Virus record (IMG/VR): IMGVR_UViG_3300045125_000040
Location: 62,001 to 126,000 of that record
Direction: 5' to 3' (one strand)
DNA: 64,000 nucleotides
Origin: a virus
Positions 37,901-54,660 of the stretch are shown in pieces. Numbering within the stretch: position 1 is the first letter of the stretch; every line of letters begins with the position of its first letter. The translations under genes were made by a program, and so were the position numbers. The notes beneath the pieces are model-generated. The model did not search any database and was not told the DNA's origin. It saw only the letters and a program-made list of their open reading frames with translations.

Positions 37901-38332
37901 ATGAATATTGAAGATATATTATCTGAATGGAAAGCTGATGGTAATATTGATAAAACTGAATTAGGTGATGAAGCATTAAAGAAGGCTAAACTTCATCACA
38001 AATATTATCAGATTTTAATCACAGAAAGACTAAAACTTAAAAAGCTTGATTCTGAATTAAAAATTCTCAAGCTTGAAAAGTATGAATATTACACTCAAGG
38101 CGCATCTCAAGAGCATATTGAAAAGGGATGGAAGCCTCTTAGTAAAATAATAATAAAATCAGAGATTCCTTTGTATATGGACAGTGATGCAGATATCATT
38201 CGTAAAAATCTTATCATTTCACAACAACAAGAAAAAGTAGATCTTATTATGGATATTTTAAAAGTGATTCACAATAGAGGATATGATGTGAAGAATGCCT
38301 TGGAATGGCAGAGATTCACCATGGGAGGATAA
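37901..38332 (+). CDS. uvsY: Recombination mediator UvsY
   Basis: 143 residues, intact. ILSEWKADGNIDKTELGDEA, KLHHKYYQILITERLKLKKL, KLEKYEYYTQG and a C-terminal IHNRGYDVKNALEWQRF follow the UvsY pattern. It loads UvsX on gp32-coated ssDNA. Followed directly by uvsW with overlapping stop/start; preceded by a consensus promoter. Confidence 0.85.
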   Translation: MNIEDILSEWKADGNIDKTELGDEALKKAKLHHKYYQILITERLKLKKLDSELKILKLEKYEYYTQGASQEHIEKGWKPLSKIIIKSEIPLYMDSDADIIRKNLIISQQQEKVDLIMDILKVIHNRGYDVKNALEWQRFTMGG

Positions 38333-40827
38333 TGAAAGAAATTATTCAAATTGAAAAATATAATGAAGTTTATAATAGGATAAAAGCAGATCCTGGTATA
38401 ATCATGGAGATGAGTGATTATTTCACTTTTTCTGTGCCCGGAGCCAAATTTACTCCAGCATATAAGAACAAATATTGGGATGGTAAAATACGCCTTCTGA
38501 ATTCAATGACTGGTTTATTATATGGTGGACTTCTGAACTATGTAGAAGAATTTTGTAATTCAAGAAATTATGATATTGAATATATTTCAGATTTTTCTAC
38601 ACAAGAATTTTCTTTAAAAGAGGCCAATGATTTTGTCATAAATATTAAACCTGCGATGCAACCTAGAGATTATCAGCTAGATGCATTCGTTCATGCTGTG
38701 AGGGAAAGACGAGCATTGCTCCTTTCTCCCACAGCGTGTCATATGGCCGGGGATAAAGTTTTGATGTATTCAGGAGAATGGAAAAATATTGAAGATATTA
38801 AAATAGGTGAATATGTTATTGGTGAAGATGGACTACCAAAGAAAGTAATCAATACATTTAATGGAGAAGATGATTTATATCACATTCAACCAAAAAACAA
38901 TTCTTCTAAAATAACTGTCACTGGAAATCATCTTCTTCCTCTTAAATTTTCTGATTATTCTAAAAAATATGGTTATGGAAAAGGAGATAAAAATTTTATA
39001 GAAAATTTAAGTGTCGTTGAATATATTAACAAATCAAAATATTATAAACATTCTGCTAATATATTTTATAACAATAAAATTATTAATTTTGAAAATCAAA
39101 AAGATCCAGAAACTTTGTTGTCTCCATACTTTATTGGCTGTTATTTAGGTGATGGTCACTGTGGTTCTTGTGCTATAACAAATATAGATAAAGAAATTAT
39201 TGATGAAATATATAAACAAGCAGAAATATCATCTTGTAATGTTGTTATTAATCAAAACATAACTTATTTTTTAAGAGGTAAAATAGGAAAAAAATAAAAT
39301 ATTAGTCGAATTTGAAAAATGTGGTTTGTGTTTTTCTGGTAAAAATAAATTAAACTGTGGTAATAAATTTATACCAGACACATTATTAAAATCAACACCA
39401 GAATTTCGTTTTGAATTATTAGCTGGATTAATTGATACAGATGGAACACTTGATAAAAACACAAGTTTTGTTTTTACATCAAAATCATATATTTTAGCAA
39501 ATGATGTTTTGAAATTAGGAATTTCCTTGGATTTAGATGCAGTATCGCATCAAAATTAAATAAAAAATATAATAAAATCTATTATAATGTGAGAATATGT
39601 GGTGATATTGAAAAAATACCAGTAAGAATATCTAGAAAAAAATGTGTAAAAAAACTATAAAGGATAGTTATAGATCAAAGTTTGATGTGTTATACCATGG
39701 AAGGGATAAATACTATGGAATTCAGGTTGAAGATCATCTATACATAACAAATGATGGAATGATCACACATAATTCTGGTAAGTCCTTTATCATCTATTTA
39801 CTTGTGAGGTATTATGCGAAAAGAACTCTTATTATTGTACCAACTACTTCTCTTGTTAGTCAGCTTGCCAGTGATTTTGCTGACTATGGCTTCGACTCTG
39901 ATGCTTACGTACATCGTGTCTTTGCTGGACAGGATAAGGGATCAACAAAACCAATCACAATCACAACTTGGCAGAGCATATACAAATTACCTAGCGAATT
40001 CTTTAGTGACTTTGATGTTGTCATCGGAGACGAAGCTCATCTCTTCAAAGCAAAATCTCTTACTTCTATACTTGCTAAGATACCCAATGCACGCTACCGT
40101 TTTGGATTTACCGGAACATTGGATGGTACTCAAACCCACCGCCTCGTTCTTGAAGGACTCTTTGGACCAGTCAGAAAAGTAATTTCTACTGCAGAACTGA
40201 TTGAAAAGAAGCATCTAGCAGAGTTTAATATCAAAGCCATTGTTCTTTCTTATCCAGATGACATAAGAAAGATGATAGCAAGATCAAAATGATTATCAAT
40301 CAGAGATTGACTATCTTGTTAGGTGTGAAGCCAGAAATAAATTTATTACAAACCTTGTACAATCATTAGAGGGTAATACTCTTTTACTTTTTCAGTTCGT
40401 TGAGAAGCATGGAAAGGTATTATATAATAGTCTGATTAATGAATCAAGTGATAGAAAAATATTTTTTGTTTCTGGTTCAGTTGATGGTGAACAACGTGAA
40501 GAAATAAGAAGGATTGTTGAGAATGAACGGAACGCTATTATTGTTGCTTCTTTTGGTACTTTTTCTACCGGCGTCAATATTAAGAATTTGCATAATATTA
40601 TTTTTGCTAGTCCTTCAAAGTCAAGAGTTAGAAACTTGCAAAGCATCGGTAGAGGCTTACGTAAGTCGGATAGTAAAAACAGTTCCACTCTCTACGACAT
40701 CAGTGACGACTTATCCTGGAAGTCCAAACGAAACTTCACGCTCTTACACTTCATGGAGCGAATAAAGATATATAATGAAGAAAAGTTCAATTATAAACTG
40801 TATAAAGTTTCACTGTGTATTAAATAA
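38332..40827 (+). CDS. uvsW: UvsW helicase interrupted by an intein (frameshifted)
   Basis: N-extein (135 residues) begins IIQIEKYNEVYNRIKADPGI and reaches QPRDYQLDAFVHAVRERRAL then LLSPTA. After the intein, SGKSFIIYLLVRYYAKRTLI restores the Walker A motif (SPTA+SGKS). Further SF2 motifs: LIIVPTTSLVSQLASDFADY (Ia), VIGDEAHLF (II), FGFTGTLDG (III), VASFGTFSTGVNIKNLHNII and LQSIGRGLRKSD (VI). Breaks occur near 39290, 39545 and 40290. UvsW unwinds R-loops and branched DNA, switching origin-driven to recombination-driven replication. Downstream lies gp55. Confidence 0.9.
38737..39773 (+). mobile_element. LAGLIDADG intein in the UvsW P-loop
   Basis: About 345 residues. It begins with Cys (CHMAGDKVLMYSGEW, block A), has block B VTGNHLLPL with the conserved His, and ends DHLYITNDGMITHN (blocks F and G) directly before Ser+1 of SGKS. 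Two LAGLIDADG-type motifs are visible: YFIGCYLGDGHCG (about 39130) and FELLAGLIDTDGTLD (about 39415), so it carries a homing endonuclease. The endonuclease part contains two frameshifts (near 39290 and 39545), probably sequence errors, but real decay cannot be excluded. Splicing is required to rebuild the ATP-binding loop. Confidence 0.9.
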
Positions 40828-53053: not shown

Positions 53054-53055
53054 TA

Positions 53056-53125
53056 AGCGGGTGGGAGGTATAGTTATCTTGCCGGTTTCATACGCCGGTA
53101 AAAGTGGGGGCAGTTCCCACCCGCT
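53056..53125 (+). ncRNA. Candidate structured RNA with two alternative stems
   Basis: Outer arms AGCGGGTGGGA (53056-53066) and TCCCACCCGCT (53115-53125) pair perfectly over 11 bp. Inside, TTGCCGG (53079-53085) pairs with CCGGTAA (53095-53101). A second copy of the left arm core, GTGGG (53104-53108), can pair with the same CCCAC (53116-53120), giving a small competing hairpin. GC-rich against an AT-rich background and free of genes. Could be a riboswitch-like element, a processed small RNA or an mRNA end; I recognise no known class. Confidence 0.5.
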
Positions 53126-53146
53126 TCCAATAATACGAACTTCCTG

Positions 53147-53184
53147 ATTGTATTCTTTTTTTACCTCTATTTCTCGAATACAAT
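53147..53184 (+). other. Inverted repeat in the gap before tRNA-Lys
   Basis: ATTGTATTC (53147-53155) and GAATACAAT (53176-53184) are perfect 9-bp arms with a 20-nt T-rich loop. The rest of 53126-53234 holds nothing else I can name. It may be part of the same transcript structure as the element before it. Confidence 0.35.
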
Positions 53185-53234
53185 TTTCGTGCAGGTTTTC
53201 TGTGATCCTGTGGAAGAAAAACAGACAAGTTTAC

Positions 53235-53310
53235 GGACTCTTAGCTCAGTAGGTAGAGCATCGGACTTTTAATCCGCTGGTCTTGGGTTCGAACCCCAAA
53301 GAGTCCTCCA
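53235..53310 (+). tRNA. tRNA-Lys (anticodon TTT)
   Basis: Acceptor GGACTCT pairs with AGAGTCC; D arm TAGCTCAGTAGGTAGAGCA; anticodon loop CTTTTAA with anticodon TTT; T arm TGGGTTCGAACCCCA; CCA encoded at 53308-53310. 76 nt, complete cloverleaf. Lys(UUU) suits the A-rich codon use of the phage. Confidence 0.95.
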
Positions 53311-53311
53311 C

Positions 53312-53319
53312 TATAAATA
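53312..53319 (+). promoter_or_regulatory. T4-type late promoter TATAAATA
   Basis: Exact TATAAATA one base after the tRNA-Lys CCA end and 18 nt before the ATG at 53337, with a caaggaga ribosome site between. Confidence 0.6.
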
Positions 53320-53336
53320 GGGCAAGGAGATTGCCC

Positions 53337-53538
53337 ATGAGTGTAATTGATTTTACAAAGTTAAAAGAGAAGCAAGAACTTCAGCGTGAACTAAAAAGAA
53401 TGGCAAGAGCGTTTACGTTTGGCTTATGAATATGATTGGAAAGATCCTTCAAGAGCTATCTGCCATTCTGAAGTTAAAAGATTAAAAGAACTTTTGGAAC
53501 CAGAAACAATTATTGACAAGATAAGTAGATTGAGTTAG
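53337..53538 (+). CDS. Small charged helical protein between tRNAs (frameshifted)
   Basis: About 67 residues after a break near 53406. SVIDFTKLKEKQELQRELKR, MARERLRLAYEYDWKDPSRA and EVKRLKELLEPETIIDKIS give a highly charged helical protein. Similar small helical proteins are common in T4-like phages; function unknown. It ends 5 nt before tRNA-Asn. Confidence 0.5.
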
Positions 53539-53543
53539 TATAT

Positions 53544-53618
53544 TGGAGTGTGGCGCAGCGGTAGCGCAGGTGACTGTTAATCACTTGGTCGCAGGTTCGA
53601 ATCCTGCCTCTCCAGCCA
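53544..53618 (+). tRNA. tRNA-Asn (anticodon GTT)
   Basis: Acceptor TGGAGTG with CTCTCCA (one T-T mismatch), D arm with GCGC/GCGC, anticodon loop CTGTTAA with anticodon GTT, T arm GCAGGTTCGAATCCTGC, encoded CCA. Asn is abundant in the fibre proteins, which use AAT heavily. Confidence 0.93.
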
Positions 53619-53630
53619 GTTTAGAGAAGG

Positions 53631-53725
53631 CAGTATCGCATCACGGCTATGGATCTGCGGAGCTATAGCGAGGTCGGGAGATGAACCGTGAGGAGGCCAT
53701 CGTAACCTTGGAAACCCGGATACTG
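53631..53725 (+). ncRNA. Candidate structured RNA near tRNAs
   Basis: CAGTATC (53631-53637) pairs with GATACTG (53719-53725), closing a 95-nt element. Inside, CACGG (53642-53646) pairs with CCGTG (53696-53700), and CTAT (53647-53650) with ATAG (53665-53668), forming nested helices. No open frame of note, GC-rich. It lies 12 nt after tRNA-Asn. A phage small RNA or a tRNA-derived or processed element is possible; class not recognised. Confidence 0.45.
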
Positions 53726-53762
53726 AAAAGAGGATGCATACTCGTTCCTTTCTAATTTAATA

Positions 53763-53816
53763 GACTATGGGGTGGACGCCATAAATAGTCCCGTGAGGGT
53801 CCACGGTTAGACCCTC
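53763..53816 (+). promoter_or_regulatory. Leader element with competing helices
   Basis: GACTAT (53763-53768) pairs with ATAGTC (53785-53790). GTGGAC (53772-53777) can pair with GTCCAC (53799-53804), which overlaps AGGGTC (53796-53801) that pairs with GACCCT (53810-53815). The last hairpin is followed by CCTTTAA and then by the ribosome site (ggagag) of a secreted protein. CATAAATA (53780-53787), a weak late box, is inside. Attenuator-like layout; unproven. Confidence 0.4.
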
Positions 53817-53833
53817 CTTTAATGGAGAGAAAG

Positions 53834-54110
53834 ATGAAGAAGTTTTTAATTGTTCTTACGTTTCTTGGTTTAATTGCTGCAACTCCAGCTAATGCATGAG
53901 TATCGCTATGGGTATGGTGGATACTATGGAGGATGGGGTCCAGGTGCAGCAGTTGGTGCGATGGCTGGTGCCGCTATTCTTGGTGGTGTAATTGGTGGTG
54001 CTATTGCCTCGCAGCCCTATTATGGTGGATATTATAATGGATACTATCCACGTAACTATTACTATTATAATGCTCCTCCTCCTGTTTACAACTATTATTA
54101 TGGATGGTAA
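53834..54110 (+). CDS. Secreted Gly/Tyr-rich small protein with glycine zipper (frameshifted)
   Basis: About 91 residues. MKKFLIVLTFLGLIAATPAN then A is a clear Sec signal peptide (Lys, hydrophobic core, A-N-A cleavage site). A break near 53897 then leads into EYRYGYGGYYGGWGPGAAVG, AMAGAAILGGVIGGAIA (glycine-zipper-like segment that could insert in a membrane) and a Tyr/Asn/Pro-rich tail (PYYGGYYNGYYPRNYYYYN). Such Gly/Tyr proteins are known in the envelopes of Proteobacteria, some of them Alphaproteobacteria, so host origin is possible. Followed 1 nt later by another secreted protein gene. Confidence 0.7.
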
Positions 54111-54111
54111 A

Positions 54112-54378
54112 ATGAAAAAGCTTCTATTGGCTTCGGTTTTTGTCATGATTTCTACAAGTTCTTTTGCACAGTATATTATTTCTGGTTATGGTCCTGTTAC
54201 AGGAAATGTATATATTGCAGAGCCATATGTATATCCTGTACCAGTTCCTGTGGCTGTGCCTCAACCAGTTCCTGTTCCTGTTCCAGCCCGTAGACCAGTT
54301 TGTACTTCATATCCTGATCCATGGGACACACTAGGATATATTTTTGGTGATCCCTTTATGATCACTACTTGTTATTAA
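54112..54378 (+). CDS. Secreted Pro/Val-repeat small protein
   Basis: 88 residues, intact. MKKLLLASVFVMISTSSFAQ is a Sec signal peptide (cleavage after SFA). The mature part has PYVYPVPVPVAVPQPVPVPV, a Pro-Val repeat likely forming an extended rod, then a Cys pair (RRPVCTSYPD, ITTCY) at the C-terminal end. It might span the periplasm or modify the cell surface, for example in lysis or superinfection exclusion; this is inference. Confidence 0.7.
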   Translation: MKKLLLASVFVMISTSSFAQYIISGYGPVTGNVYIAEPYVYPVPVPVAVPQPVPVPVPARRPVCTSYPDPWDTLGYIFGDPFMITTCY

Positions 54379-54386
54379 CGGCTAGT

Positions 54387-54460
54387 GCGGGTGTAGCTCA
54401 ACGGTAGAGCAGTCACTGCTCGCAGTGACAGGGTGTTGGTTCAAGTCCAGCCACCAGCAC
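54387..54460 (+). tRNA. tRNA-like gene, anticodon uncertain
   Basis: D arm TAGCTCAACGGTAGAGCA, T arm GTTGGTTCAAGTCCAGC and acceptor GCGGGTG/CACCAGC (one mismatch) give a tRNA shape. The anticodon arm GTCAC/GTGAC encloses an 8-base loop TGCTCGCA, one base too long, so the anticodon (GCT, CTC or TGC are possible readings) cannot be fixed. One inserted base, as in many genes here, is the simplest explanation. No CCA is encoded. Confidence 0.65.
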
Positions 54461-54480
54461 TATAAAAAAAGAGTTTAATT

Positions 54481-54583
54481 ATGGATAAAAGTATCTTCAA
54501 ATTATGTGGATGAAAGTTCTAGCGTTTTTCTTCTAATGATAACAATGGGATTTATTCTACAAGATTTATATACCTTTGGATAA
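54481..54583 (+). CDS. Possible broken small membrane protein between tRNAs
   Basis: ATG 54481 opens MDKSIFKLCG and stops; in another frame MWMKVLAFF (from 54504) followed after a shift by LLMITMGFILQDLYTFG is strongly hydrophobic, ending just before tRNA-Gly. One or two single-base errors would unite these as a ~34-residue membrane peptide. Weak support. Confidence 0.3.
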
Positions 54584-54585
54584 TT

Positions 54586-54660
54586 GCGGGTATAACTCAG
54601 GGGTAGAGTGTCAGCCTTCCAAGCTGTTCGTCGCTGGTTCGAATCCAGTTGCCCGCTCCA
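54586..54660 (+). tRNA. tRNA-Gly (anticodon TCC)
   Basis: Acceptor GCGGGTA/TGCCCGC, D arm AACTCAGGGGTAGAGT, anticodon loop CTTCCAA with anticodon TCC, T arm CTGGTTCGAATCCAG, encoded CCA. 75 nt. Gly(GGA) codons suit the glycine-rich adhesins. Confidence 0.94.

What the first reader, a model, noticed from the sequence alone, without database searches (positions are those of the whole stretch)
38737..39773. LAGLIDADG intein splitting the UvsW ATP-binding loop
The intein lies exactly between SPTA and SGKS of the P-loop, so UvsW cannot bind ATP until splicing occurs. This gives post-translational control of the switch from origin to recombination-driven replication, and homing into a highly conserved site. 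Blocks A, B, F and G and two LAGLIDADG motifs are readable despite two frameshifts.
Basis: partly seen in the sequence, partly recalled or inferred. Interest (0 to 1): 0.72.

Follow-up and report, generated by a model that had tools for sequence, protein, structure and literature searches.

The report
Mobile intein in phage UvsW helicase
A self-splicing, self-spreading protein element (an intein) sits in the ATP-binding loop of a T4-like phage's UvsW helicase; it is a new example of a well-known kind of mobile element, the breaks in its reading frame are almost certainly sequencing errors, and nothing found here shows that it controls the helicase.

Summary
Window 38737-39773 (+) is a class-1 intein (Cys1, block B TxxH, His-Asn end, Ser+1) with a two-motif LAGLIDADG endonuclease. 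It lies exactly between SPTA and SGKS of UvsW's Walker A loop. The frame changes three times inside the intein, not twice, and once in the C-extein. The capsid, portal, protease and clamp-loader genes of the same window are broken in the same way, so these are contig indel errors rather than decay. Twelve IMG/VR UvsW genes carry a related intein at the identical site, each in one open frame. Its nearest relatives are 52-58% identical but sit in distant UvsW proteins (extein 26-43%). The closest UvsW proteins (76-86%) have an empty site, and 79 of the 80 best matches do. This mismatch supports gain by horizontal homing. The wider family fills P-loops of many phage ATPases at the same or the classic GK|T position; its closest solved relatives are the VMA inteins (PI-SceI). 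That the unspliced precursor cannot use ATP is likely, by analogy with RadA. A regulatory role in the replication switch is unsupported, and the patchy distribution argues against a conserved one. Verdict: new member of a known kind, modest interest.

The parts
37901..38332 (+). uvsY (upstream neighbour; its stop overlaps the uvsW start)
   Evidence: PF11056 UvsY 7.7e-22; phrog_231 2.2e-35
38332..38736 (+). uvsW N-extein, ending ...LLLSPTA (first half of Walker A)
   Evidence: PF21241 UvsW_N 1.5e-16; phrog_16259 DNA helicase 4.7e-33
38737..39773 (+). class-1 LAGLIDADG intein (about 347 aa), CHMAGDKV...GMITHN; the frame changes three times
   Evidence: PI-SceI-type match in PDB by sequence 4e-8
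38737..38955 (+). N-terminal splicing blocks (A to B): Cys1 and T62-G-N-H65
   Evidence: PF05203 Hom_end_hint residues 1-72, 4.1e-14; C1 and H65 invariant in alignment
39127..39160 (+). LAGLIDADG motif 1 (PYFIGCYLGDG), active-site Asp present
   Evidence: G138 D139 G140 invariant
39407..39445 (+). LAGLIDADG motif 2 (ELLAGLIDTDG), active-site Asp present
   Evidence: PF14528 6.2e-5 and PF05204 4.3e-4
39705..39773 (+). C-terminal splicing blocks F and G (YYGIQVEDHLYITNDGMITHN)
   Evidence: Y328 G329 D341 H346 N347 invariant
39774..40824 (+). uvsW C-extein, beginning SGKSFIIY (second half of Walker A), motif II GDEAH, helicase C domain; one frame change near 40285-40295
   Evidence: PF04851 5.6e-17, PF00271 2.3e-7; phrog_16 6.9e-46; frames

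Best explanation
This is a mobile class-1 intein with a LAGLIDADG homing endonuclease, inserted in the Walker A loop of uvsW. The gene is translated as one precursor; the Hint domain cuts itself out (Cys1, then Ser+1, then Asn cyclisation) and joins SPTA to SGKS, giving normal UvsW. The endonuclease cuts intein-free uvsW genes of co-infecting phages at the joined site, and recombination repair copies the intein in. The site is favoured because its sequence hardly varies, and because imprecise loss would destroy the helicase. Shown here: gene, site, intact catalytic residues, empty homologues, intact alleles elsewhere, and extein/intein mismatch. Inferred: splicing, cutting, homing, and ATPase inactivity of the precursor.
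For: Exact junctions and residues. Pfam Hint and LAGLIDADG matches. Twelve UvsW genes in IMG/VR with a related intein at the identical site, all in one open frame. 79 of 80 best-matching UvsW loci have SPT[AG]|SGKS uninterrupted. Window intein 52-58% identical to L092-L095, whose exteins are only 26-43% identical, while L096 has 63.5% C-extein identity but only 39.6% intein identity, and L002-L005 (76-86% C-extein) have none. Extein tree: the window nests with intein-free L002 and L004 (95/88); intein tree: it groups with L092-L095 (99, SH-aLRT). AlphaFold2 model of the L092 intein (pLDDT 92.4) matches PI-SceI, E 4e-23, and VMA inteins. Frame breaks also hit gp23, gp20, gp21, gp22, gp44, gp46 and phoH; runs of 6 or more bases are four times denser in the intein (7.7 against 1.8 per kb).
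Against: No splicing or cleavage was measured. In this contig the intein frame is broken three times, so intactness rests on residue conservation and on intact alleles elsewhere. The breaks in the intein (3 in 1.04 kb) are denser than elsewhere (about 24 in 22 kb, my count), although its homopolymers are denser too.
Confidence: 0.93

Rival explanations
1. The intein is a regulator: splicing is slow or conditional, and its timing sets when UvsW becomes active and hence the switch from origin-dependent to recombination-dependent replication.
For: It splits Walker A, so the precursor is probably inactive; conditional splicing at P-loops is known for RadA and mycobacterial DnaB (PMC6195587).
Against: Sporadic presence: 1 of the 80 best-matching UvsW loci, nearly none in isolated phages. 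Intein and extein trees disagree. An apparently intact endonuclease explains its maintenance without any benefit.
Confidence: 0.06
2. A dead intein: real frameshifts have inactivated the element and with it UvsW.
For: Three frame changes in the intein and one in the C-extein.
Against: The major capsid protein, portal, prohead protease and clamp loader in the same window are broken the same way, which a viable phage could not bear; all splice and endonuclease residues are kept; twelve relatives have open frames.
Confidence: 0.03
3. The endonuclease has lost activity and only the splicing part still works; the intein is now inherited vertically.
For: L180 carries a shortened 273-aa relative at the same site, so endonuclease loss seems to happen in this lineage.
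Against: Both LAGLIDADG acidic residues are kept in the window copy, and the closest UvsW relatives lack the intein, which points to a recent gain.
Confidence: 0.15

Closest known systems
PI-SceI / VMA inteins (yeast VMA1, T. litoralis VMA)
   Same: Hint plus LAGLIDADG architecture; best sequence match in PDB (4e-8) and best fold match (E 4e-23 for the L092 relative). From general knowledge, not tested here, the yeast VMA intein sits at the same Walker A position (PGAFG|CGKT).
   Different: Host gene is phage UvsW, not a V-ATPase; about 347 aa instead of 454; Ser+1 instead of Cys+1; only about 20% identical in the fold alignment.
Phage P-loop inteins in terminases and SF2 (D10-like) helicases (e.g. 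Klebsiella JD001, Listonella phiHSIC, Vibrio PS65A.1; mycobacteriophage TerL1-a/b)
   Same: Full-length homologues at 27-32% identity; phiHSIC at the same Walker A phase (AATG|CGKS), others at GK|T. PMC5050341 describes P-loop insertion as the classic pattern.
   Different: Different host proteins; four of the five isolate loci inspected use the GK|T phase.
UvsW P-loop inteins in IMG/VR contigs (L092-L096, L111, L172-L176, L180)
   Same: Same gene and same site; the nearest (L092-L095) form one clade with the window copy.
   Different: Uncultured contigs, not described in the papers searched; L095 and L111 also hold a second Hint-like element at the DExx box.

Membership tests
Class-1 intein | Nucleophile (Cys/Ser) at position 1 | tested here: met
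   TGT at 38737; C1 invariant
Class-1 intein | Block B T/N-x-x-H | tested here: met
   T62-G-N-H65, H65 invariant
Class-1 intein | His-Asn end and Ser/Thr/Cys at +1 | tested here: met
   THN|S at 39765-39776; H346 N347 invariant
Class-1 intein | In frame with both exteins; homologues lack the insert at exactly that point | tested here: met
   79 of 80 best-matching UvsW loci have the joined site; the frame itself is open only in relatives
Class-1 intein | Self-splicing | not testable with these tools
   needs expression
LAGLIDADG homing endonuclease | Two LAGLIDADG helices each with an acidic residue | tested here: met
   D139 and D234 invariant; PF14528 and PF05204 matches
LAGLIDADG homing endonuclease | Site-specific cutting of the intein-free allele | not testable with these tools
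   needs a cleavage assay
Conditional-splicing regulatory intein | Splicing responds to a signal and alters host-protein timing | not testable with these tools
   no sequence evidence for it; patchy distribution argues against a conserved role
UvsW helicase (host gene) | UvsW_N domain, SF2 helicase core and helicase C domain, next to uvsY | tested here: met

The most novel reading that the evidence does not exclude
Splicing of the UvsW intein is slow or conditional during infection and works as a timer that delays R-loop unwinding and the shift to recombination-driven replication.
Probability: 0.05. Interest if true: 0.65.

Novelty: new member of a known kind. Interest (0 to 1): 0.27.

Why it matters
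It adds UvsW to the list of phage recombination helicases whose Walker A loop is a homing target, with a clear set of empty and filled alleles and a visible mismatch between intein and host-gene history. That makes it a tractable case for studying intein spread among T4-like phages. It does not by itself change ideas about replication control.

Tried and rejected
Single-sequence search of IMG/VR with the read-through intein found nothing; only the alignment queries did. NCBIfam gave no intein match. No relative in GTDB genome contigs with the clade-specific alignment. Synechococcus phage DSL-LC02 looked like a UvsW intein in an isolate but has an ordinary helicase gene of normal length. Salmonella phage 38 has a helicase gene annotated in pieces, with no intein-sized insert. 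The AlphaFold model of a whole intein-bearing UvsW precursor was too weak to use (pTM 0.49). No paper in the library was found that reports an inteinated UvsW; subscription papers are not held, so priority cannot be claimed.

Full report
Observation. The window lies in an IMG/VR virus record of 158,790 bases. UvsY (37901-38332) is followed by uvsW starting at 38332. The N-extein ends LLLSPTA at 38736; the next codon is Cys (38737), and the insert ends THN at 39773, followed by SGKSFIIY. The N-extein matches UvsW_N, and the C-extein matches ResIII and Helicase_C. The first 186 residues of the insert are in one open frame and match Hom_end_hint at 4e-14; the middle piece matches LAGLIDADG_3 and, just under its cut-off, Hom_end. 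In PDB the best sequence relatives are PI-SceI structures.

Frame changes. The frame changes three times in the intein (about 39286-39298, 39525-39535 and 39634-39660) and once in the C-extein (about 40285-40295). I compared the window with proteins of Methylophilales phage Melnitz and of IMG/VR relatives. The major capsid protein gp23 is split over three frames, and gp20, gp21, gp22, gp44, gp46, the neck protein and PhoH also change frame, while gp17, gp47, UvsY and the late sigma factor are open. By my count that is about 24 changes in 22 kb. A living phage could not carry all of these, so they are errors of the contig. Runs of six or more equal bases are 7.7 per kb in the intein against 1.8 in the window, which accounts for the somewhat higher density of breaks there.

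Empty and filled sites. Of the 80 IMG/VR loci that best match the C-extein, 79 read SPT[AG]|SGKS without interruption and one (L023 = L096) carries an intein at the same point in a single open frame. A query made from an alignment of inteins found more. UvsW genes with an intein at the identical site are L092, L093, L094, L095, L096 and L111, and L172-L176 and L180: twelve contigs, none with a stop inside the intein. In isolated phages, 2419 of 2423 records with a match cover at least 80% of the joined 66-residue site in one place. That query also reaches related helicases, and the few exceptions were not all inspected.

History. The window intein is 57.8, 54.7, 52.5 and 52.0% identical to those of L092-L095, whose C-exteins are only 35-43% and N-exteins 26-33% identical to the window's. 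L096 has a C-extein 63.5% identical but an intein only 39.6% identical. L002-L005, the closest UvsW proteins (C-extein 76-86%), have no intein. In the extein tree the window groups with intein-free L002 and L004 (95/88). In the intein tree it groups with L092-L095 (SH-aLRT 99), then less surely with L096 and L111 (92). Several extein rows have long branches, so deep placement is unsure, but the nesting of the window row among empty sites does not depend on them. Horizontal gain of the intein in the window's lineage is the simplest reading.

Wider family. The 80 best relatives in IMG/VR mostly sit in P-loops of ATPases, in two phases: (T)(G/A)|(S/T/C)GK(S/T), as here, and the classic GK|(S/T). 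The first phase needs 7 changes on the tree against 20 in shuffles. The AlphaFold2 model of the L092 intein (pLDDT 92.4) matches PI-SceI (E 4e-23) and T. litoralis VMA. From general knowledge the yeast VMA intein occupies the same Walker A position (PGAFG|CGKT); I did not test that here.

Function. Splicing is inferred from Cys1, TxxH, His-Asn and Ser+1. Endonuclease activity is inferred from the two acidic LAGLIDADG residues. That the precursor lacks ATPase is likely, because Walker A is split and the P-loop intein of P. horikoshii RadA is reported to disrupt ATPase (PMC6195587). Conditional splicing is known in other proteins, but nothing here points to it in UvsW, and patchy presence plus horizontal gain argue against a conserved switch.

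Novelty. P-loop inteins in phage ATPases are well described (PMC5050341). No open-access paper found here names UvsW as an intein host. The finding is a new member of a known kind.

Noticed in passing
window 20436-58643: Many essential T4-type genes (gp13, gp20, gp21, gp22, gp23, gp44, gp46, phoH) change reading frame, so the contig has a high indel error rate and any frame-based finding in this window needs care.
   Followed up: yes
L095 after 2924; L111 after 1950: These UvsW genes carry a second Hint-like element starting at a Cys just after VIVDE of motif II (DExx box), so UvsW is hit at both Walker A and Walker B.
   Followed up: partly
L180:3001-3819: A shortened (273 aa) relative at the same UvsW site, ending Lys-Asn instead of His-Asn: perhaps an intein losing its endonuclease.
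   Followed up: no
L177, L178, L179 at 3001: Relatives of the UvsW intein inserted in a different, non-UvsW phage protein (GVGG[AP]|C...), not at a P-loop.
   Followed up: no
window 54387-54460 +: ARAGORN reports a tRNA with a four-base anticodon (ctcg); probably an indel error in a tRNA gene of the cluster at 53054-54660.
   Followed up: no
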